Positions 19,262-61,422 of a DNA stretch of 64,000 bases are shown piece by piece. Origin of the DNA: Procambarus clarkii. Its lineage: Eukaryota; Arthropoda; Malacostraca; Decapoda; Cambaridae. Positions within the stretch are counted from its first letter, which is position 1, and the number at the start of each line of letters is the position of its first letter. Made by a program: the position numbers and the translations under genes. Location of the stretch: contig NC_091227.1 of the NCBI RefSeq assembly GCF_040958095.1, positions 13,761,262-13,825,261 of the forward strand. The letters run 5' to 3'. The notes under the pieces were generated by a model. The model saw only the letters and a list, made by a program, of their open reading frames with translations, had not been told where the DNA came from and made no database searches.

Positions 19262-22200
19262 ATGAAGCTCCTGGTCTTGTGTTCATTGGTAGCGGCGGCT
19301 GCCGCCTGGCCAAGCTTCGATCTGGAGGGCTACCAGAGTGACTCCTCGGGTGAGTTCAATTCTTACTGTTATTAATCTTACTTTAGACTCTGAACCTCAC
19401 CTAACCTCCACAGGTGAACAGCCCCCGACCAATGCTACTCTCACATTCGACCACACACACGCTCACTTTTCTCATTTGATAGTCGCATTATGAACGCATC
19501 TATTATATAAATAGTCGCCGTATAGATCTTGTTCATCTTGTTCAACACCGAACTGGGAGGTTGGTTGCTAACTTATACTACCATATTACAAACATTACCC
19601 CATTCTCGCTAACTACCTTCAGTTATCCGTTGTTTGATATTTTAGATTTAGCTACTCAGAACGAAATGTCCATGTAGCACGGGCTATGGTGAGCCCGTAA
19701 TTCAGTTATCCGTTTATACGTAACCAACAGGAGCATTATCTGTGGTTTGTGGTTCCCAAGGGACCAATTGTTGACAACCTTATTTAATATCTTTGATGAC
19801 TTAATTTCTTGTGGAGCTATTACGAATTCCATTCATTATGTTTACATATAATTTATTAGACCTTGGTTACTTAGAAATAACATTCTATGTTATTTTAAAG
19901 AATATAGAATGTTGTATAGAATAACATTCTATGTCAATTGGCTATGAGAGGCTATTGATGAGCGACTCGGCAGTTCATTTATCAAGAGCGAAGTAGTTTG
20001 GGGCAATTAACGTCTTACGTAATTATCAGAAGACACCAATTCAGGTAGATTAATAACCAACGTCAAACAAATTTTAGTTTGATGGTAACAAGGGATGTTC
20101 CTGTTAACGTGGAGGAGGGCGGTAATCCTGGGTAGTTAACTATAGGAAGCATGATTGACCACAACGAGAAAACTCCATTATCGAGAATAATCGGCGTCAA
20201 TAGAATATTTCATACGAAGTCGTCTCGTCATAACATTGAAATTTCACTTATATGGAGGTAGGCTCCCAAAGCTAGGAAGATAGTTTAGACATCAATCTAG
20301 TAGTAGTAGACATCCATCAGTCTCAGGAGACTATGGAGTTGCGCTCTGGTTGTCGGCCTGGAGTAGCCTCTCCAGGACGCAAAGCCAGGGTAGAATGTAC
20401 ATCATTCTATGTACACTTATAACTACATAATGTGAGTCCATTCTCTAGTACTATGCCCAGAGCTGTGCCGTTGTACAAGTGAGACTCAGACGGGCAGCAT
20501 TAGATTGTCACATTGCTGACCCTTCTACTTGTGACTCCCACTACCCTCTTGGTCCTATTTCAAGCATTTATGTTGAACCCGAGTATCTTTGATAACTTTT
20601 ATCTAAAATATCCCCCATTACAAGGTTCTCTATTCCCTGTTCTTTTGTTTGCTAGCAGTAAGTCCCATATATGATTTCCCTTAAATCGCTTTACAATATA
20701 TTACTTGACAAAAATATCATTGTCAGTTGTAACATTATTGTATTGTAAAATAGTTGAGTTATGTAGCACATGAAATGGGATAGGAAATGGGTTGGAAAAA
20801 TGGAATGAAGGAACGATGCTAAACCACTTGGACCATCGGGAATCGAATGCGGGCCTGCAAGATGCAAGGCCGTCACTGGACGGACCAGTCCAATGGAGTC
20901 AATTCTTAATCATGTCTTTGGTGAGACTGCAATAACATAACATAAAAGAGATAAATATTTTCTTTAGAGGGATTTCATTTTACATATAAACACTGTTTGG
21001 CTGCAACTGCTATATTAATGGCCTTACGTGATTGCCGTGATAATTTTTTTCCCAAATTAGAAGTATTCTCTTGTTTCCATGTTTATGCCAAAGCTATGTG
21101 CCAAATATGTTTAGTTCAACTTCTACTTGAAATATATAAGGCATTACAATATTGTCTGCTAGTAAGCATTTAACAAGATTTATTTTCTCCAGGTACGGCC
21201 TTAGCCAAGAAACAGCAAGATGTAAACCACCTGCTGGAGCACGTCTATGACCACCTTCACTATAAAGACCTGAAGGATCTCGCAGGGACCTTCTCCCCTG
21301 AGGCTGACACCTCCCTCTACACTGATGATGGCGCAGCCGTCCATGCGCTTCTGGAGGAGCTCAAAGACGGCAGGCTGTTGGAGCAGCACCATTGGTTCTC
21401 ACTTTTTAATACACGCCAACGTGAAGAAGCTCTCCTACTCTTTGAAGTTCTGATTCACTGCAGAACGTGGGAGGGCTTCCTTGACAACGCTGCTTACTTC
21501 CGTGAGCGCGTGAATGAAGGAGAGTTTGTGTACGCACTCTATGTGGCTGTCATCCACTCAGATCTGGGACATGGCATTGTACTTCCTCCACTCTACGAAG
21601 TCACTCCTCACCTGTTCACCAACAGTGAGGTCATCAACAAGGCTTACTCAGCCAAGATGACCCAGACACCAGGCAAATTCCACATGGATTTCACTGGAAC
21701 AAAGAAGAACAAGGAACAGCGAGTGGCATACTTCGGCGAGGATATTGGCATGAACATTCACCACGTTACTTGGCATATGGACTTCCCCTTCTGGTGGAAG
21801 GACTCCTACGGCTACCACCTGGACCGCAAGGGAGAGCTCTTCTTCTGGGTTCACCACCAACTTACTGCTCGCTTTGACTCTGAGCGTCTCTCCAACTGGC
21901 TGGATGTTGTTGATGAAATACACTGGGAAAAGGTTATTCACGAAGGATTTGCTCCACATACCAGCTACAAGTATGGCGGAGAGTTCCCAGCTCGTCCTGA
22001 TGATGTCCACTTCGAGGACGTAGATGGTGTAGCTAGAGTGCGTGACATGGTTATCTTAGAGAGCCGCATTCGCGACGCCATTGCTCTTGGCTACATCACC
22101 GACAAAAGCGGAAACCATATTGACATCAGAAACGAGCACGGCATCGACCTACTAGGAGACATCATTGAATCTTCAGTATACAGCCCCAACGCACAGTATT

Positions 22201-23338
22201 ACGGAGCCCTGCACAACACAGCTCACATAATGCTTGGTCGCCAAGGTGATCCTCACGGCAAGTTCGACATGCCTCCAGGTGTCATGGAACACTTCGAGAC
22301 CGCGACCCGTGACCCAAGCTTCTTTAGACTACATAAGTACATGGACAACATCTTTAAGGAACACAAAGACAGCCTTCCTCCCTACACCAAATCAGACCTC
22401 GAGTTCCCCGGCGTGGTCGTGGACGGTGTTGCCATTGATGGAGAACTCAAGACATTCTTTGACACTTTCGAGTTCAGTCTTGTTAATGCAGTAGACAAGT
22501 CTGACAACGTGGCAGATGTTGACATCTCCGCTGATGTAAAGCGCCTCAACCACGAAGAATTTTCTTACAATATTGACGTCACCAACAACAATGGCGGAAA
22601 TGTACTAGCAGCCTTCCGCATCTTCTTGTGTCCTACTAAGGACAGCAACGGAGTCAGGTACACCTGGGATGAAGGTCACTGGCACTGCATTGAGCTGGAC
22701 AAGTTTTACAAAACATGTAAGTATATCCTACTTTCTATCGTTTTACTATTTATAAGATAGCTATATATTGAGTCATCCAAGTATTAATGCTAGCATCAAG
22801 TTAATGATTTAAATACTTATAACTTTTGAATGGAATATTTTGACATTTAAAATATGTAAACGAGACTATATGTAAAATATTTTGTGCATTCCCTACAGTG
22901 TCTTCAGGATCTAACCACGTTGTTCGCAAGTCAACTGAGTCATCAGTGACAGTCCCTGACAGACTAAGCTTCGAAGAATTGAAGAAGAGAACTGACGCGG
23001 CCGTAACCAGTGGCAGCGAACTTGACCTTCACGAGTTCGAACGGTCGTGTGGCATCCCCAACAGACTGCTCTTGCCTAAGGGTAAGGAGAGGGGAATGGA
23101 ATTTGCCTTGTTTGTGGGTGTGACCAACGGCGACGAGGATAAGACCGTAGACAACCCTGAAAAGCTTGGTCCCACGCATGCTCAGTGTGGCATTCACGGA
23201 GAAAAGTACCCAGACAAGCGGCCCATGGGTTACCCCGTCGACCGCAGAATCCCAGACAATCGCGTCTTCCTCGAGACTCCCAATATCAAGAGGATCTTCG
23301 TCAATGTCTTCCACGATGCGCACCATGGTGATCACTAG
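19262..23338 (+). CDS. Hemocyanin subunit, complete three-exon gene
   Basis: Coding exons are 19262-19349, 21193-22716 and 22899-23338 (88+1524+440 nt, 683 residues plus TAG). Introns are 1843 and 182 bp, both phase 1, with GT..AG ends (TTTTCTCCAG and TTCCCTACAG acceptors). The product is a secreted hemocyanin subunit: signal peptide [16 protein letters not shown] domain, copper M domain, C domain. All six copper ligands are present: His220, His224 ([11 protein letters not shown]), His250 (FFWVHHQ), His370, His374 (GALHNTAH), His410 (FFRLHKYMD). Compared with the minus-strand gene, the protein differs at only 5 positions between residues 37 and 491. It then differs at 14 of 47 positions in residues 492-538, and the tail is three residues longer, ending HHGDH. 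It lies in inverted orientation to the other complete gene, and the two starts are 8.87 kb apart. It looks intact and functional. Confidence 0.97.
20299..20393 (+). mobile_element. Family C fragment in intron
   Basis: Starts in AGTAGTAGTAG and continues TCTCAGGAGACTATGGAGTT, then GACGCAAAGCCAGGGTAG, as in the other family C copies. Confidence 0.55.
20773..20893 (-). mobile_element. SINE B fragment in intron
   Basis: Contains ACCACTTGGACCATCGGGAA and the inverted B box GGGAATCGAATGCGGGCC. Confidence 0.5.
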
Positions 23339-23571
23339 ACACAACATCAATACAATGAGCCTCAACCTCAACATGTATTTCAAGAATGGGAGCCAATTTA
23401 TGTGTACACTTATGTAAAACTTACCTCAAGATTAAACACCACTTGAAGGAAACACTTGAGGAGTGAATACATATTGAAGGAACACAAATTTAATGAACAC
23501 CAATTGAATGAACACAGTTGAATGAACATCAGTAGAATGAACACAACTTTAATGAATACTTTAGCAATAAA
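23339..23571 (+). promoter_or_regulatory. Hemocyanin 3' UTR with poly(A) signals
   Basis: Downstream of TAG at 23336-23338 lie ATTAAA (23431-23436) and AATAAA (23566-23571). The UTR contains a degenerate repeat of AATGAACAC units (about 23465-23610). Confidence 0.5.
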
Positions 23572-24279
23572 CATCAACTAAATGAACACAACCTGAATTA
23601 ACACAATATTATAGATAAACGTTTCGAAATTATTAATTTCCTAAGTTTTTATCCGAGGTTGAACGTATATGAACAACAACAACAGCAAATATAAAGTGCA
23701 TAATATGCACTGCCTGTCAAACATGCCATTGTCATATTCACTGGAGGAAAATGGTTCCAAATAAAAAAAATATACAAGATCTTTTAATTGTTTTAATCAA
23801 CAACTATTGTGAATTGACCAAAGTTCCAAGCGCCATACATACCAGAGAATCGCTAGTGGAAGCTATATTACTTTAGCGTGCGACCAGAGAATAACTCATT
23901 TAAGATTCAAGCAAGACGAAGATGGGAATGAAGGGGAAATTACTGATACACCTCACAGACTCTAATTGTCATCAATGCGGTCTAAACACGATACACACAC
24001 ACAGATGTTAAGGGAGCTCGCTTAGTCTTTTCTGTTACGTTATGGTCTTGTCTTACTTCGTCAGACTTTTGACAGTTAAGATAAGTGTTGCCTACTCGTG
24101 AGAATATGTCGACTTCTTGAGGTGATACAAGGCTTTCTTCGGGTGACGGAGGGCCACATCTTCACTATACTCTATCTTTATCACTGTAACCAGCTTCACT
24201 ACTGACAACCATCGTCTCTGTTAACTATCTTCACTACTCACGACCTTCATCATCACCACCTTACCTCTCCTTCACCTCC

Positions 24280-24490
24280 TAACAAACCCTTCACCACCTT
24301 CTCTTTCCTTTACCACCTTCCCTATTCCTAACCACCTTACCTACCCCTTCACCACTTTCCCTATCCTTCACCACCTTCCCTGCCCTTCACCACCTTCCCT
24401 GCCCTTCACCACCTTCCCTGCCCTTCACCACCTTCCCTGCCCTTCACCACCTTCCCTGCCCTTCACCACCTTCCCTACCCTTCACCACCT
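24280..24490. repeat. 19-bp minisatellite
   Basis: About 10 copies of CTTCACCACCTTCCCTGCC; the central six are nearly identical and the edges degenerate. Confidence 0.9.
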
Positions 24491-24800
24491 TTCCTTATTC
24501 ACTGTGATTATTTTCATTACACACAGCCTTCCTCAGTAAATAATCACTAGACTTACAATCTAGTAGAAAATAATATTCTTCAAGAATGTTAAAGTTAGAG
24601 TCTGATATTTATCGATTGGAAGATGAAATCATTTGTCATTTCATGCAACAGGGGACATACGACTCGACTCCAATCCACCTCCAATCCTCCTTCAGCAACC
24701 ACCAGTCACCCTGCAAAGTTTAGTGAAGCGTCTGACCTCCGGCCTCTGACAAACAAACTAACTCAAGGGATCTATCTCTTGATCTTGAGCTGTGATCAAG

Positions 24801-24955
24801 AGACAGCGCCAAGCCATAACGACTATATAGCACTTAGAAGGGGTCAGGATAAGGATTTGGGATAGGACAGGGAGGAAAGGAATGGTGCCCAACCACTTGA
24901 ATTAGAGCCGGTGATCGGGCGCCGTCTTGCAACCTTGCACTGATCATTCCAAGTA
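24801..24955 (-). mobile_element. SINE B copy
   Basis: AGCGCCAAGCCATAACGACT, GCCCAACCACTTGAATT, and a degraded tRNA-like head on the right. Confidence 0.6.
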
Positions 24956-25020
24956 GCGCGTCTCAAAAAATACATCCCGTTCCTGAGAAAAGGACACCAT
25001 AGGAAAATACATTATACAAT

Positions 25021-25130
25021 GCAGGCGATGAGTCACAATAACGTGGCTAAAGTATCGACAATCGACTTGAGAATGGTCCAGGACGGACCGAAACGTCGTC
25101 GTCCCTTCACATTCTAGTGTGTGGTCTTGT
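25021..25130. mobile_element. Fold-back family R1, single arm
   Basis: GCAGGCGATGAGTCACAATA followed by GAATGGTCCAGGACGGACCG and CTAGTGTGTGGTC. Only one arm is present, so an internal part has been lost. Confidence 0.65.
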
Positions 25131-25199
25131 CATCATACATTATACAATAATGAATACTAGGAGAATGCAATTTTTAATGTAACAATTAAAGGAATCTGG

Positions 25200-25345
25200 G
25201 TACAAGTGACAGGATGAACAACCCAACGGGTTTTCTTCCTATTGGGGAGTGTTGTACATGCTGCTATGCCCGTATAACACTCACAGGATAGGAAGTCCAC
25301 TCACAGGATGAGTGGCGCTGCCCAATAAACTCACCCCTCGGGGGA
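25200..25345. repeat. Unclassified dispersed-type sequence
   Basis: Contains AACCCAACGGGTTTTCTTCC and TAACACTCACAGGATAGGAA with an internal duplication of CTCACAGGAT. No coding content. Confidence 0.3.
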
Positions 25346-25724
25346 AAAAAACCCACAAAAATACATCCCCATTGTTGCTACACAATCTATTATACATTGA
25401 CAACTAGTGTGGCTCTCGGCGTCGCTTTGGTAACGGAGGCCACATCTTCGCTACAAACAACATTCACCACTGTAACCATCTTCACTACACACTCTCTTCA
25501 CCATCGAAATCACCATCACTAAAGTCTCATCACCATCAATAAATTACACAAGGCAAACTAACAATCACGTAGAAAATAATAGGTAAGGTGAATCATATTA
25601 CTGGAGTTTGGTATTATAGCGAACTTAGAATATGGTATAATTTGCCATTGTTATGCATAATGGGAAGCGTGGAGTTCCGGGCAAAGCCCACTCTGCAAAT
25701 GAACAAATCCACAAGGGCCGTGAC

Positions 25725-25795
25725 GAAGATTCGAACCTGCGTCCGGGAGCATCCCAGACGCTGCCTTAATCGACTGAGCTACGACAGGGTAAAAA
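25725..25795 (-). mobile_element. tRNA-like SINE head (family D)
   Basis: On the minus strand: TCGTAGCTCAGTCGATTAAG, an anticodon-like loop region, and the B box GGTTCGAATCTTCG. It resembles a tRNA more closely than the other heads, but it continues into a SINE-like body towards 25650. Confidence 0.5.
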
Positions 25796-25891
25796 GAGTT
25801 GAAACCGAAGTTCTACTGAACTTACTGGATCCTGCAGCCTCTCCGAGACACAAACCAGGGTTTTACACAACTCCCCCATGCACTAACATGG

Positions 25892-25993
<102 letters not shown>

Positions 25994-26009
25994 TGATGAC
26001 AAGGTAAGG

Positions 26010-26345
26010 TAATTATCAGGAGAAACAACAAAGGCATTACGAATGTATAGCGCTTGCAAGGGTTACGAGGATAAAGATCTGGGTTTGGACGGAGGGAAGG
26101 AATAGTGCCCAACCACTGGGAGCGTCAGGGGATCGAACGCCGTCCTGATGATGCAAAAATGATGCCATTCCTGTACAAACCAGTCCAAGGTAAGGTAATT
26201 ATGAGGAGAAATCGCTAAGCCAGTATAACTATAGTCCTAGGAATGAATAGAGGTTGGAATGATGAGAATGGTGCCCTAGCACTTTGGATCATTGGGATAG
26301 AACGCCGACCTTGCAAGATAGAGGATCGTCCTCTACCGTCCAAGT
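26010..26345 (-). mobile_element. Two tandem SINE B copies
   Basis: The copies are 26010-26190 and 26191-26345. Each begins AAGGTAAGGTAATTAT on the plus strand and ends at the inverted tRNA-like head near CCAGTCCAAG or CAAGTGG. They are head-to-tail neighbours. Confidence 0.6.
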
Positions 26346-26408
26346 GGCTTGGTTAAATCTGTTGACTCATATTTAACAGCTAAAATATGTTAAATCATAT
26401 TTCTAGTG

Positions 26409-26475
26409 TGTCTACCACACACTAGAAATTGAAGAGACGACGAGGTTTTGGTCCGTCCTGGAATATTATCAAGTC
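26409..26475. mobile_element. Fold-back family R1 fragment
   Basis: ACCACACACTAGAAATTGAA with GACGACGAGGTTTTGGTCCG; diverged single arm. Confidence 0.55.
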
Positions 26476-26490
26476 AGGCGTGATGAAACG

Positions 26491-26612
26491 AAGATTGATT
26501 GATTGATTGATGAAGATTAAGCCACCCAAAAGGTGGCACGGGCATGAATACCCCGTAAGTGGTGGCCCTTTTGAGCCATTACCAGTATCAAGAGCTAGAT
26601 GAAACGAAGGAG
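26491..26612. mobile_element. Dispersed element family E with (TTGA)n end
   Basis: A TTGATTGATTGATGAAGATT end, then AAGCCACCCAAAAGGTGGCA and CGGGCATGAATACCCCG. Related copies lie at 48769-48822 and 55552-55745 (inverse), ending in (ATCA)n. The short tandem tail suggests retroposition. Confidence 0.6.
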
Positions 26613-26891
26613 GCGAGGGCAATAAATAGGCAAGAGAGAGAGGTGAAAAGATGAAAATCTTAGAGGAAGTTAATCACAAGGCAAAAGGTACGGAAGGTAA
26701 GGTGAAATAAAGGGTGTAATAATAGGAATAAGAAAGGGATCGTGTGAGAAAACAAGAGAAAGAAATAGAAAGATAAAAGGAAGGATAAGCTTACGTTAGG
26801 TCGCGCTAGTTAGGAACTTTAGAACATTTGAGTATATACTATGAAATGAAAGAATCAGCAGCAACAAAGCCAGAACTCGGGTTCAGGTTGG

Positions 26892-26895
<4 letters not shown>

Positions 26896-26925
<30 letters not shown>

Positions 26926-27150
26926 GCATCCAACAGTCTCAGGAGACTATGGAGTTGCGCTCTGGGTGTCGGGTTGGAGTGGCCTCACCAGGGCGCAAAG
27001 CCAGGGTAGGTTGATTTGGGGGAGAAGCTGTTACCCAGGCAGCAGGTCCCCCCTCTCCACGGCGCTGAAAGTCTCCAGTGGAAAGGCATACGCCAATACG
27101 ATTGGATCCAGCGCCGTCGCAGGAACTGTGAGTTCCGGAGTTGACCTCGA
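26896..27150 (+). mobile_element. Family C element with (GTA)n start
   Basis: Ten GTA units, then TCTCAGGAGACTATGGAGTT, GGGCGCAAAGCCAGGGTAGG and GGATCCAGCGCC. It ends just short of the recoded-looking frame at 27198. Confidence 0.6.
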
Positions 27151-27197
27151 AGGTGGTGAAGAAGGGCACATGTATTAAAACTGTTGTTTTTGATCTA

Positions 27198-29840
27198 TCA
27201 TTCTTGCTCGTATGATACGGTGCTCGTACGGTTATGAGATAATCCGGAAGATGAGCTCGTACGGTTATGAGATAATCCGGAAGATGAGCTGGTACGGTTA
27301 TGAGATAATCCGGAAGATGAGCTCGTACGGTTATGAGATAATCCGGAAGATGAGCTGGTGCGGTTATGAGATAATCCGGAAGATGAGCTCGTACGGTTAT
27401 GAGATAATCCGGAAGATGAGCTCGTCCGGTTATGAGATAATCCGGAAGATGAGCTCGTCCGGTTATGAGATAATCCGGAAGATGAGCTCGTACGGTTATG
27501 AGATAATTCGGAAGATGAGCTGGTACGGTTATGAGATAATTCGGAAGATGAGCTGGTACGGTTATGAGATAATCCGGAAGATGAGCTCGTACGGTTATGA
27601 GATAATCCGGAAGATGAGCTCGTACGGTGTTTATCATCCAGAACACCGTACTTTTCATACTCCTGCTGTCTTAGATATTCCAAGGTGCTGCCTACGTCTT
27701 ACCCTAATTTCAACTTGTTTCTCGCTATGACACTCAACATTTTCAGTACGAATCTATCGTAGTGATAGGTTGTTCTATCTATTCTATCCTAATCCGGGGG
27801 TTCGAACATTGCCAGAACCGCAACCAAGATTTTAGCACCAGTATGTGTTACCGCAGCAACTGATACTGCTGTCAGGATCAGAAGGAGGAGCAGGAAAGTT
27901 AACGCCACGTAAACAAAGACTTAGTTTTTTCTCACTAAATCCTCAGTCGCAGTCTTCAAGTCGAACCTCGCATATCTAATCACCTTGCCTATCGTATCGT
28001 TATAATAAACGGCTCCGACCATGGGGACGTAGTTATGTATCTAGATCAGGGGGTCACTGACCAGGCAGCCATATGCATTCTCATTGTTCCACATGTTATC
28101 GTGCGAACTAATTTTGGCGTCCCATTTCACTTCATAACTCCAGGAACCTGAATGAACGATTCTACCGGTAATATCAAACCATCTTACCGTCGCTCCTCTC
28201 ATTTTAGCTTCAAAGTTCCCAAGGCCTCCATACTTGCAAATTAACTTCTAGTTCTTATTAAATAATGTTGGGATATCTAAGAATATCGGAGGTTTTAAAC
28301 GAGGATTTATAAATGCTCCTTGAGAGATAGTGCTGCTGCCAATTTTGGTATTTTCCGTATCACCCTTTGTAAGCAGATCTATTTTATGATGTTTATTAAT
28401 TGTTACTGTCCGTATACGTCCATGCAATCCCCATTTTGTTTCCTCTGATGTTATTGAAGAGGCATACAGATACGACTTAACTGATATGGGAATGTTGCCA
28501 AAGGTAATTGTCTCCTAACAACGGCGAGGAGCTGATTTCTACTTGAATTCGGCCATTTCGTTACCAGACCAGAGTCTGACTCCGTCATACCTGATTTACA
28601 TTTTAACTTACTGTGATTCATAAAAATTCATAATAGAGGGGTGAGTAAAGCAATCTTGTCTGGTGATCAAATCACCGCAGTAAAGCAAGTTAAAATATTT
28701 ATTTATCGCTAAGCCCCAGCCTTTCTAACTCTGTTTGTGCTTCACAAACACCAAAACTTGTAAGTGGCTCTGTGCTCGAAGGTCGAAGACTGCTAGCTCT
28801 ATTTCCGTTATGTTGTCTACCTGTTTAGTGCACTAAATCTCACTTACCGTCGATCCCTTGTAGATGAAGCCGTCAATTGACGGAGGTAAGTCAAGGAACT
28901 AGAAGGATCTGTCTACAAAGGACATTTACTTGACTAACCGGTCTCTTATAGAGAAGGTGTATTTCTCATAGTTTATCATTAGGTTTGCGATTTTCAGCTT
29001 GAAAGGATCATCGTCTAAATGTGTTTCTTTGATATTCTCTACAAGTGTTCCTGGGATATTCTCTACAAATGTTCCTGTGATTTTCTTTACAAGTGTTCCT
29101 GCGATATTTTTGGCGTATGTTCCTGCGATATTCTTTAAGTGTTCTCCTATGCTATTATCTACGGTCTCATTTATCTTAAGTATTGCACATATATACAAAT
29201 AGTATTAGCTGTATGTTGCATTCATTTTATTGATAAACTTTATTGATTTTATGTGGAAATCTCCACTTTCATCTTTCCAAAACAGTTTGTTTCTCATTAT
29301 GGCAAAAAATATTTGGTCGTATATTAATGGTTTAACTGTAAACATTGCCTCTCTTAAGCTTACGCGGCCGTTGGTTGCTTCAAAGAATAATGTTTAGTTC
29401 TAAATATACACATATATCGCGTTCTAGTTACCTAAACAGTATCGTTCTTAGCACAGGGCCACAAGATTTGTAATACCCTGTTGATGCATATTAATGCTGA
29501 AGTCCATAGATAATACAAACATATGGTTATATGGTAAATTAAACTGCGGTTCGAAACCAACGCGAGTTTTACTATTACATTAAACAAACTTCGGAATCAA
29601 TTATTCTTCTGTTATTCTAGAAACCCTCTTTTTCCTAACCCTCTTATCTATAACGTCTACCATTTTCTTATATATCTCAGATGGAGTCTCACTAGTTGCT
29701 GCTTTTTGGAAAGGGTTTCCTGACATTATTCCTTGATGATAATCGCTTTCAAAAGCAGCGAAGTTGTAGCACCTTATTGTCGAAGACAACATTGTCACTA
29801 CGAAGGCAAAGATCAATACTCTCCTACTAAAAGATAACAT
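27198..29840 (-). CDS. 881-codon frame with 20 in-frame TAA/TAG and terminal TGA: candidate stop-recoded membrane glycoprotein gene
   Basis: One minus-strand frame runs from ATG (29840) to TGA (27200-27198) with no shift. TAA codons (low coordinate) are at 29601, 29580, 29448, 29394, 29205, 28926, 28608, 28596, 27921, 27699. TAG codons are at 29424, 29400, 28899, 28833, 28725, 28539, 28515, 28248, 28041, 27789. No other in-frame TGA occurs up to 29925. The product would have a signal-like hydrophobic segment (residues 7-23), a polybasic site KRVRKKR (66-72), an ectodomain with about 11 Cys and sequons such as NAT, NET and NIT, a 9-residue repeat near 229-265, one long hydrophobic membrane segment just after residue 640, and a tail of about twelve 11-residue repeats (SSSSGLSHNRT). 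This is type I membrane glycoprotein architecture, as in surface or viral envelope proteins; no family is recognised. Either TAA/TAG are sense codons (ciliate-like code) or this is a decayed gene that by chance kept its frame and gained no TGA. No pol or gag-like neighbour is visible. Confidence 0.5.
27222..27628 (-). repeat. 33-bp tandem array forming the C-terminal tail of the 27.2-29.8 kb frame
   Basis: About 12 copies of a 33-bp unit (on plus, GAGCTCGTACGGTTATGAGA then TAATCCGGAAGAT). The period is a multiple of three, so all frames stay open; in the frame of the candidate gene it gives an 11-residue Ser-rich unit with an NRT sequon in each copy. Variation between copies is mostly C/G and A/C point changes. 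Confidence 0.9.
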
Positions 29841-30079
29841 TTCCTTAAGAAAGTCAAACTAGTTCATTAGATAGACTTGCTTTGGGATAAATAAATAAAT
29901 AAATTTAATAAATAAGTAAATAAATCAGATTTTTAGCAGGATTGCATTCAAATTTAGTTATCTTGAAATTTAAAGAACCTGCGAGAAATAGACTTTCATG
30001 AATCAGGGGAATTATCATTTTCTTTGCATAGATTAAGGAATCTGCTTCCATCACGTCTGTTCAAGGGATCCACAGTAAA

Positions 30080-30168
30080 AACCACCGTCTTCCCAGTACT
30101 CTTTGTCATATAACGCTTTGAAACTACCTACAGGTTCGGCTTCCACCACCAAAAAAGTTCAAGGGATC
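30080..30168 (-). mobile_element. LINE 3' fragment (family L2x)
   Basis: CCGTCTTCCCAGTACTCTTT and CAGGTTCGGCTTCCACCACC match 33430-33490, inside a longer LINE remnant. Confidence 0.55.
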
Positions 30169-30173
30169 CATAG

Positions 30174-30430
30174 TAGGTTATCTTAAGGTTATCTTAAGAT
30201 GATTTCGGGGCTTTTTAGTGTCCCCGCGGCCCGGTCCTCGACCAGGCCTCCACCCCCAGGAAGCACCCCGTGAAAGCTGACTAACACCCAGGTACCTATT
30301 TTAGTGCTAGGTAACAGGGGCATAGGGTGAAAGAAACTCTGCCCATTGTTTCTCGCCGTCGCCTGGGATCGAACCCGGGAACCACAAGATCACAAGTCCA
30401 GCGTGCTGTCCGCTCGGCCGACCGGCTCCC
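30174..30430 (-). mobile_element. SINE A, near full length
   Basis: On the minus strand: GGGAGCCGGTCGGCCGAGCG (A-box region), a GGTTCGATCCCAGG-type B box, then GGGCAGAGTTTCTTTCACCC, GTTACCTAGCAC, AATAGGTACCTGGG and a body ending in the CGGGGCTTTTTAGTGTCCCC block. The order tRNA head, unique body, 3' block is clear. Confidence 0.75.
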
Positions 30431-30524
30431 TAGAACAGTAGGATCCATAGGACAAAAAACTTTTGTCCTACCGGGAGAAAAGACTCAGTAGGACCCTTAA
30501 GGGATAAGACCAACCAAGTTATAG

Positions 30525-30602
30525 AAGTAGTAGACCTCCATCAGCCTCGGGAGACTATGGTGTAGCACTTTGGTCGTTAGTCTGGAGTCCCTTCACTCCA
30601 AG
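30525..30602 (+). mobile_element. Family C fragment
   Basis: AGAAGTAGTAGACCTCCATC then GGGAGACTATGG, a diverged start of the family C unit. Confidence 0.45.
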
Positions 30603-30939
30603 GTATACTTGACGATATAAGGGGCAGCTAACACTCTGAATGAATACTTTAAATCAGAGTTCACATTAAATTAAAAAATTCAAACTAAAATGTTTATTCA
30701 GGTGAAAGTACATACATAGAAGATGAGTTACAAGTTTAATGTTGGATTTATAGATAAAGCTAGTACTTACAATACCCAAGGCCATTAATACGCACAGCGT
30801 TTCGGGCAAGATGTAGGGAAAACACACTTAAGACTAAAACTTAATACAAATTGAGATTAAAGTATAAATTGTGTTGAAAGGGAGGGAGGGAGGGAGGAGG
30901 GGGGGAGAGGGGACATGGCAGAAATCAGCAATTAAACTT

Positions 30940-31170
30940 GCTATTTTCAGACAGTATTGTTTGAAAATAGTAAGAGATAGCAATATTTTCAAATAGCAAT
31001 AGAAAATATTGCTATTGCTATAGTATAGGCCAATAGTCCTCCTTCAGTTTTCGTGTTTCTTATGTTCCTATGAGTTTGCACCTACCCAAGTCAATTGGTA
31101 ATTAATCACGTCAATGCTAAAACAGTAGCAATATTTTCAAACAGTTTTGTTTGAAAATAGCAAGACATGG
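30940..31170. repeat. Cluster of short inverted repeats
   Basis: Several copies of CTATTTTCAAACAGTATTGT / GTTTGAAAATAG and AGCAATATTTTC / GAAAATATTGCT make nested hairpins, at about 30950-31020 and again at 31128-31165. Confidence 0.6.
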
Positions 31171-31189
31171 GTTGACATTTAGGGGGTAA

Positions 31190-31700
31190 GGTAGGTTACA
31201 TGGAGTTTATTAGGTAGTACTTAGTTTTTTTTCTTAAACTGGTTGAGAGAGGTACAGCTTCTGACATGATTGGGAAGGTCATTCCACATTCTGGGTCCCT
31301 TAATTTGTAATGCATTTTTAGTTTGGTTAAGGCGCACTCTGGTAATATCAAAGAGATATTTGTTTCTGGTGTTGTGCCTATGGGTTCTGTTACAACTTTC
31401 TAGGAAGCGTTTAAGGCCAGGATTGGCATTTCAGTTCAGAGTTTTATATATATAGAGCACACTTGAAAGAATGTGCTGTGACTTAATATCTAACATATTC
31501 ACAGATTTAAGTAAGGATACTGAGTGCTGTCTGAGGCCAGAGTTTGATATTGTTCTAATATCAGCTTTGTGTTGAGTAATTGGAGAACGTAGATGATTTT
31601 TGGGTAGTAGAACCCCAAGCACAAATACCATAATTGAGATAAGGATAGATGGGATGATTGACATCAGTGAGATCCCCACATTTATGGACTGGGGTTACTC
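31190..31700 (-). mobile_element. LINE reverse-transcriptase C-terminal remnant
   Basis: The minus strand reads, with frameshifts, the region after the RT core typical of CR1/L2-type non-LTR elements. It ends in an IKGPRMWNDLPNHVRSCTS-type motif followed by a Phe-Lys stretch. Stop codons and shifts show decay. Confidence 0.6.
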
Positions 31701-31869
31701 TCGCCTGTTTTTTAAGAATATCCTAAAAGGTTCGGAGTTCAAGGGATTTGTTGTAGAGCAATACAATGGCAGGAGCTAGAAATATGGATTATTTTTTTTT
31801 TGTAAATTAGAGTTGGTATCTCAGCATGAGGTACTTTGTTTTACATGTAGTTTACATTTTGTACTTTGA

Positions 31870-31975
31870 CTCTGTTTTAAGTTTAGTTCATTTATTATGC
31901 ACCCTATACCTATCTTGTGGGCGGTAGTGGAAAGGGTTACAGAGGCACATAATGGGCTCAGGGACTTGTTTTAAG
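31870..31975 (-). mobile_element. LINE 3'-UTR fragment (family L3x)
   Basis: TTCATTTATTATGCACCCTA and GGGTTACAGAGGCACATAAT are the reverse complement of 36090-36180, the 3' end of the remnant at 35460-36190. Confidence 0.65.
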
Positions 31976-32089
31976 AGAAAGGATTATCTCATTAACATCA
32001 GTGGAATTAGCGGGAGTTAGGTACAGAGACTATTACTAGGTATTAGAAAGTTTACACAAAATCTCAATACACACACATATTGGAAGAAT

Positions 32090-33115
32090 GTGAAGAGAAT
32101 GAGTTAAAGGATATCCCCATAACATGTGATATAATCAGTAAAAACATTAACAAACTGAAAAATTTTAAAGACCCAGGTGTGAATGGAATTCAATCTAAAG
32201 TCATCAGGGACTGGCATATGAACTCAGATTACCGCTGAAATTCCTTTTCAGAAAATTTCTGGACCAATGGATAGTTCCCTTAGACTGGTAATAGGCAAAT
32301 GTTATCCCTGTCACCAAAAAGGGAAGAAAGAGCTCCGCAGAAAACTTCCGTCCAAATCTGCCCGAAGGAGTCGGAAGAGTGGTAGATGATTTTTAATATA
32401 CAAAAATGCAAGACCTTGCATGTGGGGTATAACAGTGCACAGCACAATTATCAAATCAACACTATTACCATGCAGCAGATTGATGAAGAAAAGGACCTGG
32501 GAGTCAGAATCCACAGATCACAGAAAGTTTCACAGCACGTGAGAATGGCAGTAAAAAATGGCAACCAAATCCATGGAATAATCAGACGTAACTTTGATTT
32601 AAAGGAAAAAAAATGTAGATATTCAACTGTATAAATCTCTACAGTGCCCCTTTTTGGATTATTGTAGTCAAGCATGGTGACATCATCTTCAGAAAGACGT
32701 ACTGTGTCTGCTTTGGAGAAAGTCCAACACAGGGCATCAAAAATCATTCGTGAACTAAGACGACTTCTATACCAGGAGCGGCTGAGGGCCACAGAAGCTA
32801 ACCACACTGCAAACCAGACATGACAGGGCTGATCTCATCGAAACTTGTTCAAGTATTGAACAACTTGGAGGACATTCATACAGACCACTTCCTCAAGAGG
32901 TCTGAAGTATCGCGAACAAGGAGCAACGGATTTAAGCTGAACAAGCCACAATATAGAACAAAAAACAGTTGTTTGTTTCAGCTATGGAATCGCCAACCCA
33001 CCGAAGCCATATATGCAAAAATACTGCTACAATTTAAGATCCAAACAGATAACATCATCAAGATAAATGCAAGGAACTTTGACAAGCCGCCGGATTCCTG
33101 TCTTTGTCGAGGTTA
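32090..33115 (+). mobile_element. Non-LTR retrotransposon remnant with deleted RT core
   Basis: The left part (32100-32350) encodes, with stops, the RT approach region (KDPGVNGIQSKVIRDW; the AENFRPN-like segment is near 32335-32360). It jumps directly at about 32370 to the post-catalytic region (MIFNIQKCKTLHVGYN, EKDLGVRIHRSQ), and a C-terminal stretch follows to 33115. Motifs A and FADD are absent, so an internal deletion removed the catalytic core. Confidence 0.65.
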
Positions 33116-33314
33116 CTAGATAGATAGGAGGCCCTTAACTAAATTCAACTACATATGTCACGGGCTGGTTTACTAAATATAATATTACGTTAGTCTCCAA
33201 TCAAAGTAAATACGTTTTCTGTAACGAAAAATTTAGAGAAAATAGTAATTTGAAATGGGTGGTCTTTTATAATTATGTTCTCTACCCCCCTAGAAAATCA
33301 AGACGCGTAATTAT

Positions 33315-33850
33315 CTAAGTACTCAGTACCCACTAAGTTGTGCTTGCGGAGGTTGATCTTTGGCTCTTTGGTCTCTATGGTGCAATTACCTTAGTGCAGT
33401 TACAGGATGAGAACTACGCTCGTGGTGTCCCGTCTTCCCAGTACTCTTTGTCATATAACGCTTTGAACCTACTGACAGGTTCGGCTTCCACCACCACCTC
33501 ACTCGTTCCAACCGTGTTTGCGAAAGTTAATTTTCTTATATTTCTTCGGCATCTTTGTTTAGTTAGTTTAAACCTCTTGTTCTTGAAGTTCCAGCTCTCA
33601 GGAATGCTTCCTCATCAATTTTGCTGATTCCCGTCACTATTTTGAGCACAATGATCATATCACCTTTTTTTCTGCTATCTTCAAATCTTGACATATTTAA
33701 TGCCACTAACCTCTCCTCGTAGCTTTTGTCTTTCAGTTCCGGAAACCAGTTGCACAGTTGCAGGTCTCTGCAACTTTTCCAGTTTGATGATGTGTAATCA
33801 TCTGTTTGACGAGAATGAGCTGCTGCTTCTGAATACCCGGGTGTCAACCA
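33315..33850 (-). mobile_element. LINE remnant (family L2x) with RT C-terminal coding
   Basis: The minus strand encodes FPELKDKSYEERLVALNMSR and GDMIIVLKIVTGISKIDEE, the post-RT region of CR1/L2-type elements. The 3' end is at 33376-33500 (GTGCAATTACCTTAGTGCAG). A piece of the L1x terminus lies beyond it at 33315-33375. Confidence 0.65.
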
Positions 33851-33958
33851 GTAACTGGGTAGTCTGAAGCAACCTCGTGTAGGCCAGTGTTAATGGTCTT
33901 GAATTTGAACTTAATCGTGAATGGAGTGAAAATTCAAGACATCTTTTACTAGCGTTGT

Positions 33959-33959
33959 T

Positions 33960-34047
<88 letters not shown>

Positions 34048-34048
34048 C

Positions 34049-34112
<64 letters not shown>
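33959..34112. repeat. (GT)n microsatellite
   Basis: About 75 GT units with GAGT and CGCG interruptions, abutting LINE L1x 3' ends on the right. Confidence 0.95.
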
Positions 34113-34115
<3 letters not shown>

Positions 34116-34818
34116 CACCTAGTTGTGTTTGCGGGGGTTGAGCTCTGACTCTTTGGTCCCGCCTCTCAACCGTCAACTGTGTTTGTGTGTGTACTCACCT
34201 AGTTGTACTCACCTAGTTGTGCTTGCGGGGGTTGAGCTCTGGCTCTTTGGTCCCGCCTCTCAACTGTCAATCAACAGGTGTACAGGTTCCTGAGCCTATT
34301 GGGCTCTATCATATCTACACTTGAAACTGTGTATGGAGTCAGCCTCCACCACATCACTTCCTAATGCATTCCATTTGTCAACCACTCTGACACTAAAAAA
34401 GTTATTTCTAATATCTCTGTGGCTCATTTGGGCACTCAGTTTCCACCTGTGTCCCCTAGTGCGTGTGCCCCTTGTGTTAAACAGCCTGTCTTTATCAACC
34501 CTGTCAATTCCCTTGAGGATCTTGAATGTGGTGATCATGTCCCCCCTAACTCTTCTGTCTTCCAACGAAGTGAGGTTTAATTCCCGTAGTCTCTCCTCGT
34601 AGCTCATACCTCTCAGCTCGGGTACTAGTCTGGTGGCAAACCTTTGAACCTTTTCCATTTTAGTCTTATCCTTGACTAGATATGGACTCCATGCTGGTGC
34701 CGCATACTCCAGGATTGGTCTGACATATGTGGTATATAATGTTCTGAAAGATTCCTTACACAAGTTTCTAAAGGCCGTTCTTATGTTAGCCAACCTGGCA
34801 TATGCTGCTGCTGCTATG

Positions 34819-34822
<4 letters not shown>
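34113..34822 (-). mobile_element. LINE L1x, 5'-truncated, RT C-terminus largely intact
   Basis: A minus-strand open frame of about 170 codons encodes RPILEYAAPAWSPYLVKDKT, GMSYEERLRELNLTSLEDRR and WNALGSDVVEADSIHSFKCR. This is the C-terminal domain of a CR1/L2-type ORF2 ending in a stop at 34296. The 3' UTR runs to 34192 and ends in TGAGTACA-type units; a second partial 3' end occupies 34113-34188. The left truncation joins a (GT)n array. Confidence 0.75.

Positions 34823-34889
<67 letters not shown>
34821..34889. repeat. (GT)n microsatellite at LINE truncation point
   Basis: About 34 GT units between the truncated LINE and a CTCACTTGGCC-type sequence. Confidence 0.95.
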
Positions 34890-34890
<1 letters not shown>

Positions 34891-35139
34891 ACTCACTTGG
34901 CCGAGCTTGACCTCCTGGACTAGCCTCATTAATTGGGTTAGCATCGTTGTCCGTAATTACTTAATGCAACATTACAGTCATTGTGATGAATGGTTATATA
35001 TGGCTCGTACCGAATCCATCAGCAATGTTTACATAACAACTTAACATATTTATGTGGAATCGATTAACGTGTGTGTGTTTACACGGCAAAATAATATATT
35101 ACCTTTGAATCTATATTTAAGAAAAGAAGCTGGACTTGG

Positions 35140-35303
35140 GCTGGACGATAGAGCGACGGTCTCGCTTCATGCAGGTCGGCGTTCAATCCCCGACCCGTCC
35201 AAGTGGTTGGGCACCATTCCTTTTCCCCCCGTCCCATCCCAAATCCTTATCCTAATCAATTCCAAGGGCTATGTAGTCGTAATGGATTGGCGCTTTCTCC
35301 TAA
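35140..35303 (+). mobile_element. SINE B, well preserved
   Basis: GGACGATAGAGCGACGGTCT (A-box region), GGCGTTCAATCCCCGACC (B box), CCAAGTGGTTGGGCACCATT, TCCCATCCCAAATCCTTATC, then ATGGATTGGCGCTTTCTCC. This is the reference copy used to recognise the family here. Confidence 0.7.
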
Positions 35304-35459
35304 CGTTTTTCTCCTTTCTTCCTTTCCTCATGTTGCAACATCTTCCTTATTTCTGCCACCGTCGATTGTAATTCTTCATCCCTTGTCTTACAATTTACAT
35401 ATAGGGGAAAACAAATGATTCGAGGAATAAGTCTTATTAAGAATTATTACTATGGTTCC

Positions 35460-36190
35460 AGGTGGAGAGCGACACCAGGGCACGAGCAAGCCAGGGGTAA
35501 CTTAAACAAATATTAGGGGCGACAATATATAATGCGGAGTGTTGATAGACAAGCAGACAGATGCCTCCAATGACGGAGATGCAGCATAAATCATCGTCGC
35601 TCAGCAGACTTGATGTTACTACTGCTGCTCAGCTTAGACTCGGTTACAAGTATCTCTGGGAATTCTCATTATCTGCCGATGTAGACCTGACCAAATGTTA
35701 ACTGTGTCAACAAAATTATTCGCACACCCTCCGTCACTATGTGATGGAGTGCGAAAAGATACGTGAATTCAGAGATCATTCTATAACAAATGTTCCAGCG
35801 ATGTGTAAATATTTCATTCAAAATGATCTACTACCAGAAACCTTAGCCAAATATCCCCTGTTTGCAAACTGTAGGTAGTAACTAAGTGACTGTAACCTAT
35901 CCACCGCTGCCCACTGGATGGGGGGTGGTGTGCAGGACAAACATATCAATTGTGACACTTGCTCTCCACATATGTCAGTTGCTTAATTTAGAAACTATAC
36001 TTTTGGTCGATCTAGAACCCATTGACGATGTGACGACATATATGTTGAATTTTGTAACTCATCACAATTGTAACTTGCTTAGCTAAATTGTGGGGTTCAG
36101 TCCCTGAGCCCATTATGTGCCTCTGTAACCCTTTCCACTATCGCCCACAAGATGGGTATGGGGTGCATAATAAATGAACTAAACTAACTA
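35460..36190 (+). mobile_element. LINE L3x 3' end with C-terminal Cys/His motif
   Basis: The plus strand reads, with frameshifts and stops, LRLGYKYLWEFSLSADVDL and HTLRHYVMECEKIREF, a Cys-Cys-His-Cys-like tail found at the C-terminus of many non-LTR ORF2 proteins. It ends at TAG near 35877. The 3' UTR runs to about 36185. Confidence 0.6.
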
Positions 36191-45393: not shown

Positions 45394-45752
45394 GACCTTG
45401 ATTAGATTAATATATAAAAGAAATCAACGCTAACTGGATCAATGTATGAAAAGGAAGAATACATTGATTGAATCAAAGTACAAAAAGAGCCATACACTGG
45501 ATCAATGCATATAAAGAAAACATACGCCGATTTGGTCTTTATTTGTAAAAATAACAAAGCATATATACAAAGATACAATCAAGCAACACACAAGATGCAC
45601 AGAAGAACACAATGAAAGCAGCAAGCAAACAAACACTTAAGCACAACATTCTTTTCAGTACACACTAATTGGTTCACAGAGATTCTTTCACCCCCAAGTT
45701 TTGTGAAGGTTTTGGCAAGTGACGTTACTACTGACTCGCCATGTGTGTCTGG

Positions 45753-46790
45753 CCCCAGCAACACCCTGGCCCCAGCAACACCCTGGCCCCAGCAACACCC
45801 TGGCCCCAGCAACACCCTGGCCCCAGCAACACCCTGGCCCCAGCAACACCCCTGGCCCCAGCAACACCTTGGCCCCGGCAACACCCTGGCCCCGGCAACA
45901 CCTTGGCCCCGGCAACACCCTGGCCCCAGCAACACCCTGGCCCCAGCAACACCCCTGGCCCCAGCAACACCCCTGGCCCCAGCAACACCCCTGGCCCCAG
46001 CAACACCCCTGGCCCCAGCAACACCCTGGCCCCAGCAACACCCTGGGCCCCAGCAACACCCTGGGCCCCAGCAACACCCTGGCCCCCAGCAACACCCTGG
46101 CCCCCAGCAACACCCTGGCCCCAGCAACACCCCTGGCCCCAGCAACACCCCTGGCCCCAGCAACACCCCTGGCCCCAGCAACACCCCTGGCCCCAGCAAC
46201 ACCCTGGCCCCAGCAACACCCTGGGCCCCAGCAACACCCTGGGCCCCAGCAACACCCTGGCCCCCAGCAACACCCTGGCCCCCAGCAACACCCTGGCCCC
46301 AGCAACACCCCTGGCCCCAGCAACACCCCTGGCCCCAGCAACACCCCTGGCCCCAGCAACACCCCTGATCCCAGCAACACCCTGGCCCCAGCAACACCCC
46401 TGGCCCCAGCAACACCCTGGCCCCCAGTAACACCCTGGCCCCAGCAACACCCTGGCCCCAGCAACACACTGGCCCCAGCAACACCCTGGGCCCCAGATAC
46501 ACCCTGGCCCCAGCAACACCCTGGCCCCAGCAACACCCTGGCCCCAGCAACACCCTGGCCCCAGCAATACCCTGGGCCCCAGATACACCCTGGCCCCAGC
46601 AACACCCTGGCCCCAGCAACACCCTGGCCCCAGCAACACCTTGGCCCCAGCAACACCCTGGCCCCAGCAACACCCTGGCCCCCAGTAACACCCTGGGCCC
46701 CAGCAACACCCTGGGCCCCAGCAACACCCTGGGCCCCAGCAACACCCTGGGCCCCAGCAACACCCTGGCCCCAGCAACACCCTGGGCCAC
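45753..46790. repeat. 1-kb GC-rich minisatellite, 17/18-bp unit
   Basis: About 60 copies of GGCCCCAGCAACACCCT, mixed with 18-bp versions that add a C or G. Because lengths alternate, all six frames stay open for hundreds of codons; these are not genes. Higher-order blocks are visible: the segment from about 45950 to 46120 recurs at about 46130-46310. Confidence 0.95.
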
Positions 46791-47985: not shown

Positions 47986-48143
47986 CCCAGAGGAAGCAGC
48001 TCCGTAACAGCTGTCTAATTCCTAGGTAACAGGGGCATTCAGGGAGAAAGAAACTTTGCCCATTTGTTTCTGCCTGGTCCAGGAATCGAACTCGGGCCAC
48101 AGAATTACGAGTCCTGCGCGCTGTCCTCTCAGCTACCAGACTG
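47986..48143 (-). mobile_element. SINE A copy
   Basis: The plus strand reads CCTAGGTAACAGGGGCATTC, GAAACTTTGCCCATTTG and a GGAATCGAACTCGGGCC inverted B box, ending in CTCAGCTACCAG. Confidence 0.65.
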
Positions 48144-51545: not shown

Positions 51546-51584
51546 AGTGCTCAATAGACCTTTAGTGCTTTTTAGTGTGTTTAT

Positions 51585-53516: not shown

Positions 53517-54198
53517 TAAACCGCGTGACACAAGTCCTTGGTAAACCAGATGCCACAAGCCCTTGGTAAACCGCGTGACACAAACCCTTGGTAAATCAGA
53601 TGCCACAAGCCCTTGGTAAACCAGATGCCACAAGCCCTTGGTAAACCAGATGCCACAAGCCCTTGGTAAACCAGATACCACAATCCCTTGGTAAACCAGA
53701 TGCCACAAGCCCTTGGCAAACCAGATGCCACAAGCCATTGGTAAACCAGATGCCACAAGCCCTTGGTAAACCAGATACCACAAGCCCTTGGTAAACCAGA
53801 TGCCACAAGCCCTTGGTAAACCAGATACCACAAGTCCTTGGTAAACCGCGTGACACAAGCCCTTGGTAAACCAGATACCACAAGCCTTTAGTAAACCAGA
53901 TACCACAAGCCCTTAGTAAACCAGATACCACAAGCCTTTAGTAAACCAGATACCACAAGCCCTTAGTAAACCAGATACCACAAGCCCTTGGTAAACCAGA
54001 TGACACAAGCCCTTGGTAAACCAGATACCACAAGCCCTTAGTAAACCAGATACCACAAGCCCTTAGTAAACCAGATACCACAAGCCCTTAGTAAACCAGA
54101 TACCACAAGCCCTTGGTAAACCAGATACCACAAGCCTTTAGTAAACCAGATACCACAAGCCCTTAGTAAACCAGATACCACAAGCCCTTGGTAAACCA
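53517..54198. repeat. 25-bp minisatellite, about 27 copies
   Basis: Unit CCCTTGGTAAACCAGATRCC plus ACAAG with exact 25-bp spacing. Variants (CCTTTAG, GCGTGAC) are clustered along the array. The reverse-strand frames in it come from the repeat. Confidence 0.95.
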
Positions 54199-60720: not shown

Positions 60721-60744
60721 ACGAGTGAATACCATTGGAACTAC

Positions 60745-61142: not shown

Positions 61143-61422
61143 GAGAGTCTCATATATTGATGGATCTATTGATGCTCCTTGCTCTGGAGCATCTGAGACC
61201 CCATTTCTCAGACTGCAAGGAGCCCAGGACAAAAACAGAAGGACTCGACTCCCTCATGCATAGGATTATCATGTATAAGCATATTGGAATAACGGATAAC
61301 AGCTTAATTATGATTTACATACTGCATCTGAGGACGAAGAAAATGAGAAAATGGCATAACCAGGTGATATATATTTTTTAGATTATTGCATTATTTTCTT
61401 TGAGGGGGGGGGGGGGGGAGGG

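What the first reader, a model, noticed from the sequence alone, without database searches (positions are those of the whole stretch)
27198..29840. Long frame with 20 in-frame TAA/TAG, no internal TGA, ending in TGA: possible stop-codon-reassigned gene in a crustacean genome
I checked every minus-strand codon in this frame. 881 codons contain 10 TAA and 10 TAG and no TGA until the final codon, with no frameshift over 2.6 kb. If the 20 stops were random nonsense mutations of three equal kinds, having no TGA would have a probability of about (2/3)^20, roughly 0.0003. Decay without any frame-breaking indel is also unlikely. TGA is common in the other minus-strand frames (two in the line starting 28081). 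The protein-like character (signal, Cys, membrane segment, in-frame repeat tail) runs straight through the TAA/TAG positions. Ciliates commonly read UAA/UAG as Gln and stop at UGA; no animal nuclear code is known to me that does so. If true, this is a gene or endogenous viral element from a recoded source, or an element that depends on suppressor tRNAs.
Basis: partly seen in the sequence, partly recalled or inferred. Interest (0 to 1): 0.93.

Follow-up and report, generated by a model that had tools for sequence, protein, structure and literature searches.

The report
Possible recoded gene in crustacean genome
A crustacean chromosome holds one gene-like frame for a membrane protein that is broken 20 times by two of the three stop codons and never by the third, as if it came from an organism that reads those two as amino acids; a lucky decayed gene is still possible.

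Summary
The frame is or was coding: its codon-position signal (G=55.4) exceeds 180 repeat- and hemocyanin-free local segments (max 14.4) and simulations stripped of in-frame TGA (max 33). It is the best of the three minus phases in 16 of 17 windows, though the signal is weak in several. About 14.5 TGA were expected. It is single copy, in a 26.7-Mb contig, between two high-copy host repeats, near hemocyanin genes. No homologue was found, so the donor and the meaning of TAA/TAG are unknown. A decayed standard-code gene would have had to escape TGA (P about 0.0015) and frameshifts. I favour a foreign gene from a source reading TAA/TAG as an amino acid (probably Gln), inert in this host (0.45). 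A decayed gene or viral fossil is the serious rival (0.35). Suppressor tRNAs were barely tested. Relatives from other crustaceans would decide.

The parts
27198..29840 (-). 881-codon frame, ATG to TGA; in-frame TAA/TAG begin at 29603, 29582, 29450, 29426, 29402, 29396, 29207, 28928, 28901, 28835, 28727, 28610, 28598, 28541, 28517, 28250, 28043, 27923, 27791, 27701
27171..30084 (.). block between host repeats that holds the frame; the probes 28100-28600 (DNA) and codons 1-733 (protein, X at stops) find only themselves in the genome, apart from weak matches at the 24-bp repeat
29769..29840 (-). codons 1-24, signal-peptide-like hydrophobic start (hydropathy 1.60 over codons 1-19)
   Evidence: cleavage site not predicted with a tool
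29625..29636 (-). RKKR, furin-site-like motif at codons 69-72 (motif meaning recalled)
29014..29148 (-). 24-bp tandem repeat, read in frame as an 8-residue repeat
27804..27920 (-). codons 641-679, the most hydrophobic stretch (hydropathy 2.86 over codons 641-659), likely membrane segment; no TAA/TAG inside
27222..27628 (-). 33-bp tandem array coding the Ser-rich tail NRTSSSSGLSH; 3 of 4 distinct variants among the 12 full units are synonymous
27198..27200 (-). terminal TGA
26914..27170 (.). high-copy dispersed host repeat (SINE-like; the label is mine), listed copies mostly 95-97% identical; 27 bases lie between it and the stop codon; (GTA)n at 26892-26925 adjoins it
30085..30151 (.). short repeat, second copy in the window at 33430-33496 (96%)
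30175..30431 (.). second high-copy dispersed host repeat (SINE-like), 334 bases upstream of the ATG

Best explanation
A single foreign gene, or a viral gene, from a source that reads TAA and TAG as an amino acid (most likely Gln) and stops only at TGA was copied or inserted into the germ line of this decapod. It encodes a likely type I membrane or surface protein: signal-like start, RKKR motif, ectodomain with 10 Cys and 4 N-glycosylation motifs, one strong membrane segment, Ser-rich repeat tail. In the host, which uses the standard code, translation would end at the first TAA (codon 80), so here it is an inert passenger. Shown: the frame, its coding signal, absence of TGA, lack of clear frameshifts, single copy, host flanks. 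Inferred: the foreign code, Gln, the donor, the route and the inertness.
For: Coding periodicity G=55.4 against a local maximum of 14.4 (180 selected segments) and a simulated maximum of 33.0. TGA 0 against about 14.5 expected, minimum 3-4 in 4500 simulated frames per model; the two other minus frames hold 21 and 23 TGA and the plus frames 10, 8 and 13. The frame is the best of the three minus-strand phases in 16 of 17 overlapping windows, so no clear frameshift. Decay to 20 stops needs about 411-625 substitutions, so lack of frameshifts is improbable unless indels are very rare, and P(0 TGA of 20) is 0.0012-0.0018. Gln from CAA/CAG alone is 2.0%, low by recalled averages; with TAA/TAG it would be 4.7%, while Glu (4.6%) and Tyr (4.7%) are not short. 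TAA:TAG is 10:10 and CAA:CAG 7:8. CpG obs/exp 0.88 is above all 180 window segments (mean 0.61, max 0.82), as expected of DNA that has not sat long in this genome. No TAA/TAG falls in the signal-like or membrane segments (weak evidence, 63 codons). The window has no N, the contig is 26.7 Mb, and 81 of 81 tubulin matches lie on contigs C1-C92 with at most two in-frame stops each, so no ciliate contamination is seen.
Against: No homologue in any library searched, so no independent sign that TAA/TAG columns are Gln. The phase signal is patchy: in 5 of 17 windows this phase scores below zero, in 5 a plus-strand phase scores higher, and in 28520-28281 another minus phase does. The CpG signal is weak on a wider base: 4 of 346 segments in 104 kb reach 0.88 (that set includes hemocyanin-like genes of the flank). 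TGA-free frames of 323-393 codons with 10-18 TAA/TAG exist nearby without any claim to recoding. Transfer of a ciliate-code gene into an animal germ line is a priori very rare. No second region of the same kind in the window.
Confidence: 0.45

Rival explanations
1. Decayed standard-code gene, most plausibly an old endogenous viral element (a lone viral surface-protein gene), that collected 20 nonsense mutations, by luck none of them TGA, and no surviving frameshift.
For: Endogenous viral genes are known in decapod genomes (PMC4506587, passages seen). The frame is isolated among host repeats. TAA/TAG are dense around codons 80-149 (6) and 305-442 (8), as in unconstrained sequence. The phase signal is below zero in 5 of 17 windows. 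A whole-genome pool of fossils makes rare outcomes possible.
Against: P(no TGA in 20) is 0.0012-0.0018. With 80% of indels taken to break the frame, no frameshift has P of 0.007-0.037, 4.5e-5-1.4e-3 and below 1e-7 at indel:substitution ratios of 0.01, 0.02 and 0.05 (this host's ratio is unknown). Strong overall periodicity remains. CpG is little depleted. No parent or relative found in the genome.
Confidence: 0.35
2. Assembly chimera or contaminant: a gene of an epibiont or parasitic ciliate joined into a crustacean contig.
For: The code would fit; ciliates live on crayfish (recalled).
Against: High-copy host repeats begin 27 bases after the stop and 334 bases before the ATG. The contig is 26.7 Mb. 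No N in the window. No ciliate-like tubulin among 81 matches. The SSU rRNA search did not complete.
Confidence: 0.07
3. Chance: a non-coding stretch with a long TGA-free frame.
For: About 100 such runs are expected in 4 Gb by my arithmetic. Shorter ones occur nearby.
Against: Periodicity above every repeat- and gene-free control. Signal-like start, membrane segment and repeat tail in one frame. Ten other TGA-free frames have G of 2.7-8.5.
Confidence: 0.06
4. A working host gene read through its stops by suppressor tRNAs or programmed readthrough.
For: Would explain an unbroken frame with stops.
Against: None of the 20 internal stops is followed by C (A 9, G 6, T 5), unlike known readthrough contexts (recalled). 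Twenty stops would need near-complete suppression. Loose tRNA patterns gave 685 and 1430 places (reversed-pattern controls 179 and 88), of which only the first were listed; of six fetched, one was a tRNA, Arg-TCT. This is a thin test.
Confidence: 0.03

Closest known systems
Ciliate/dasycladacean/hexamitid nuclear code (NCBI table 6: TAA, TAG = Gln, TGA stop)
   Same: TAA and TAG inside the frame, TGA only at the end; Gln would bring its share to 4.7%
   Different: Sits in a decapod chromosome between host repeats; no homologue; the meaning of TAA/TAG is not shown. Codes with TAA/TAG as Glu or Tyr (recalled), or as two different residues (PMC10553269, search listing only), also fit
Endogenous viral elements of decapods (for example nimavirus relatives)
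   Same: Intron-free gene-sized block in host DNA; surface-protein-like anatomy
   Different: No match to a viral protein or IMG/VR contig with the pieces searched; WSSV-like genes in decapods were reported with few or no premature stops, PMC4506587 (passages)
Processed pseudogene of a host gene
   Same: Intron-free, stop-broken
   Different: No parent gene found in the genome; no poly(A) run between the stop and the next repeat (by eye)

Membership tests
Gene in a TAA/TAG-sense, TGA-stop code | Coding frame with in-frame TAA/TAG and TGA only as terminator | tested here: met
Gene in a TAA/TAG-sense, TGA-stop code | TAA/TAG columns align with one amino acid in homologues | not testable with these tools
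   no homologue or second copy found
Gene in a TAA/TAG-sense, TGA-stop code | Located in a genome whose translation uses that code | tested here: not met
   neighbouring hemocyanin genes read openly in the standard code
Endogenous viral element | Similarity to a viral protein | tested here: not met
Endogenous viral element | Flanked by host chromosomal DNA | tested here: met
Neutrally decayed pseudogene | Stop mixture as expected from codon usage | tested here: not met
   0 TGA of 20, P 0.0012-0.0018
Neutrally decayed pseudogene | Frameshifts along with nonsense mutations | tested here: inconclusive
   best minus phase in 16 of 17 windows, but below zero in 5 and beaten by another minus phase in 1
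Processed pseudogene | Parent gene in the genome | tested here: not met
   itself plus 62 matches, all within codons 198-279 around the 24-bp repeat, E 0.0177 or worse
Programmed stop readthrough | Readthrough context, C after the stop | tested here: not met
   0 of 20 followed by C
Suppressor-tRNA-dependent gene | Host tRNA with anticodon UUA or CUA | tested here: inconclusive
   2115 loose pattern places, only the first listed, 6 fetched, none a suppressor tRNA; one search used a wrong spacing

The most novel reading that the evidence does not exclude
An intact recoded gene (TAA/TAG sense, TGA stop), encoding a surface protein of an unknown family from a ciliate-code organism or from a virus using such a code, became fixed in an animal chromosome: a cross-code horizontal transfer into an animal germ line.
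Probability: 0.4. Interest if true: 0.9.

Novelty: new variant of a known kind. Interest (0 to 1): 0.6.

Why it matters
If true, it is a gene that crossed between genetic codes into an animal chromosome, where the code difference silences it at once. That would show that code change does not bar DNA transfer, would give a trace of an unknown recoded donor (symbiont, parasite or virus) of decapods, and would suggest that stop-laden 'junk' in animal genomes should be screened for frames lacking just one stop codon. My six literature searches listed 84 rows, of up to 345 matching papers per search, and none of those titles or abstract openings reports such a gene in a decapod; the unlisted papers were not seen.

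Tried and rejected
Introns of a standard-code gene: rejected, because the coding signal runs through isolated stops (for example 28043 and 27923), so almost every stop would need its own intron. Coding on another frame or strand: the other five frames hold 33-71 stops each over 27630-29840. C-to-T or G-to-A hypermutation: eight TGG and 15 CAA/CAG codons remain, and such changes would also yield TGA. Transposon or LTR element: no flanking direct repeat of 60 bases or more around the block in 22500-36000 (shorter ones not tested), and no Pfam match at a meaningful score in six frames of 23.4-38.4 kb (the only row is PadR, 14.9 bits against a cut-off of 27). Matches elsewhere in the genome to the tail (all 70 besides itself lie in codons 716-877) and to the 24-bp repeat: four such regions were fetched, and the three run through the repeat finder (C62, C71, C82) are minisatellites with units that look unrelated by eye. 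AlphaFold2 on two stop-free pieces was useless (mean pLDDT 34 and 48), so no fold search was made. The CpT/ApG depletion reported for large DNA viruses of invertebrates (PMC4219779, search listing) is absent here (AG 1.06).

Full report
1. What is there. The minus-strand frame from ATG at 29840 to TGA at 27200-27198 has 881 codons with 10 TAA and 10 TAG and no other TGA. Upstream the frame meets a TAG at 29861 and a TGA at 29927. The TGA-only run of 908 codons is the longest of 2438 in the window. Over the non-repeat part (27630-29840) this frame has 20 stops, all TAA/TAG; the other minus frames have 71 and 65 stops with 21 and 23 TGA, and the plus frames 33, 36 and 45 with 10, 8 and 13 TGA.

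2. Is it more than chance. Third-order Markov sequences trained on the region give 14.6 TGA per frame (sd 3.7, minimum 3 of 4500 frames); second-order ones give 14.5, minimum 4. Run length alone is weaker evidence than it looks: with a mean run of 51.4 codons I estimate about a hundred frames as long as the 714 unmasked codons by chance in 4.03 Gb. Six other TGA-free frames of 323-393 codons with 10-18 TAA/TAG are among the ten looked at in the 104 kb. The independent evidence is codon periodicity: G=55.4 (6 df), against a mean of 5.5 and a maximum of 14.4 in 180 overlapping window segments of equal length with under 6% tandem repeat or hemocyanin, and a maximum of 33.0 in 1500 simulations per model whose in-frame TGA had been removed. 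Of 750-base window segments with under 5% tandem repeat, those scoring over 18 lie in or around the two hemocyanin regions and in this frame, apart from one at 59251 with 18.3. Tandem arrays score up to 137, and in the 104-kb set the maximum is 165, near a hemocyanin-like gene of the flank that was not masked.

3. Is the frame unbroken. With leave-one-out position models in 240-base windows, this phase is the best of the three minus phases in 16 of 17 windows and the best of all six in 12 of 17. In the other five a plus-strand phase leads (those frames are full of stops), and in one of them (28520-28281) another minus phase is also better. In five windows, four of them covering 28760-28161 and one 29600-29361, this phase scores below zero, meaning no support there. 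A small compensated frameshift in these parts cannot be excluded.

4. What it encodes. A hydrophobic start (codons 1-19, hydropathy 1.60), RKKR at 69-72, four N-glycosylation motifs (207, 224, 343, 614), 10 Cys between codons 25 and 640, a strong membrane segment (641-659, hydropathy 2.86) and a tail of 33-bp units. No TAA/TAG lies in the start or membrane segments. Among the 12 full tail units four distinct changes occur and three are synonymous in this frame (P about 0.06 under 26% synonymous chance; the thirteenth, diverged unit was left out). These tail and 24-bp repeats count for little by themselves, because minisatellites of the same periods occur elsewhere in this genome.

5. Relatives. 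None: Pfam on nine of the 21 stop-free pieces (two sub-threshold chance matches) and on the X-masked codons 1-733; 5.8 billion proteins (codons 150-720: 7996 candidates scored, codons 443-640: 253, one piece: none); IMG/VR with four pieces (3, 3, 31 and 5 pattern matches, none confirmed); prokaryote genomes with one piece (62 pattern matches, none confirmed); PDB (one piece: two hits at E 0.032 and 0.5; one hit at E=1 in the tail). In its own genome the DNA probe 28100-28600 has 1 match; codons 1-733 match themselves plus 62 places, all within codons 198-279 around the 24-bp repeat, at E of 0.0177 or worse. No other crustacean genome could be searched.

6. Setting. The contig is 26.66 Mb of a 4.03-Gb assembly in 2308 contigs. 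The host is a decapod, judged from hemocyanin genes and repeats; the many chromosome-sized contigs (long ones seen up to number C94) would fit red swamp crayfish, 2n=188, but that is recalled and untested. High-copy repeats, which I call SINE-like, lie at 26914-27170 and 30175-30431; the copies listed are mostly 95-97% identical, and only 40 of 5943 and 40 of 5671 candidates were scored. A shorter repeat lies at 30085-30151. The block holding the gene is therefore at most 27171-30084. No tubulin match (81 of 81 on C1-C92) looks like a ciliate contaminant; an SSU rRNA search did not complete.

7. Recoded or decayed. Reaching 20 stops by neutral mutation needs about 411-625 substitutions (0.19-0.28 per site). 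With 80% of indels breaking the frame, the chance of no frameshift is then 0.007-0.037, 4.5e-5-1.4e-3 or below 1e-7 at indel:substitution ratios of 0.01, 0.02 or 0.05 (this host's ratio is unknown), and the chance of no TGA among 20 is 0.0012-0.0018. Counting only the 12 windows where this phase leads all six, 16 of the 20 TAA/TAG remain, for which no TGA has a probability of about 0.006 (my arithmetic). CpG obs/exp is 0.88 against 0.61 (sd 0.12, max 0.82) in 180 window segments, but 4 of 346 segments in 104 kb reach it, so this is moderate support for a recent arrival. Gln supplied by CAA/CAG is 2.0%, TAA/TAG 2.7%, so Gln is the least strained meaning; Glu or a split code is not excluded. Against recoding stand the rarity of such transfers and the large pool of viral fossils in such genomes. 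I judge recoding somewhat more likely (0.45 against 0.35).

8. How it would work. In the donor: an ordinary surface protein translated through TAA/TAG. In this host: the standard code ends translation after 79 residues, so the copy is a passenger. Readthrough is not favoured (no C after any of 20 stops). Suppressor tRNAs were barely tested: one search used a wrong spacing; two searches gave 685 and 1430 loose matches, well above their reversed-pattern controls (179 and 88) and only partly listed; the listed ones I judged by eye to be largely repeats and ordinary Lys or Arg tRNAs; of six places fetched one was a tRNA, Arg-TCT.

9. Literature. Six searches showed 84 rows, none reporting a TAA/TAG-recoded gene in a decapod by title or abstract opening. 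I saw passages of PMC4506587. A term search of PMC10871703 gave no occurrence of the five terms asked. All other papers were seen as listings only.

Noticed in passing
window 6069-8307 (-) and 21174-23338 (+); flanks L066 near -13.6 kb and L067 near -1.5 kb: Two very similar hemocyanin genes in opposite orientations (Pfam hits); two more long open pieces (542 and 517 codons) starting with hemocyanin-like sequence lie in the 20 kb before the window.
   Followed up: partly
frame 370 codons long read down from -2127 on the minus strand (20-kb flank, L067): A frame overlapping a hemocyanin-like gene has 10 TAA, 6 TAG and no TGA, a warning that TGA-free frames arise without recoding.
   Followed up: partly
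L068 1-5000 (window coordinates 64001-69000): Five thousand N directly after the end of the window: an assembly gap or a withheld stretch.
   Followed up: no
window 48071-48141 (-): tRNA-Thr (CGT) prediction with a weak Rfam score (31.2 bits), overlapping a repeat that also occurs upstream of the frame; probably repeat-derived.
   Followed up: no
G000 C1:2674480-2752266, 2981235-3047691, 3450154, 14832619 (L070-L073): Repeated units with a tRNA-like T arm after TCTAA or TTTAA; the four fetched are not tRNAs by ARAGORN or Rfam; nature unknown.
   Followed up: partly
window 45749-46785, 53529-54198, 58659-59280, 60712-61145 and others: Very dense minisatellites (periods 18, 25, 33, 30 bp), some with long spurious open frames in several phases.
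   Followed up: no
window 51148-51561 (-): Fragment of a reverse transcriptase (RVT_1, 46.8 bits), remnant of a retrotransposon.
   Followed up: no
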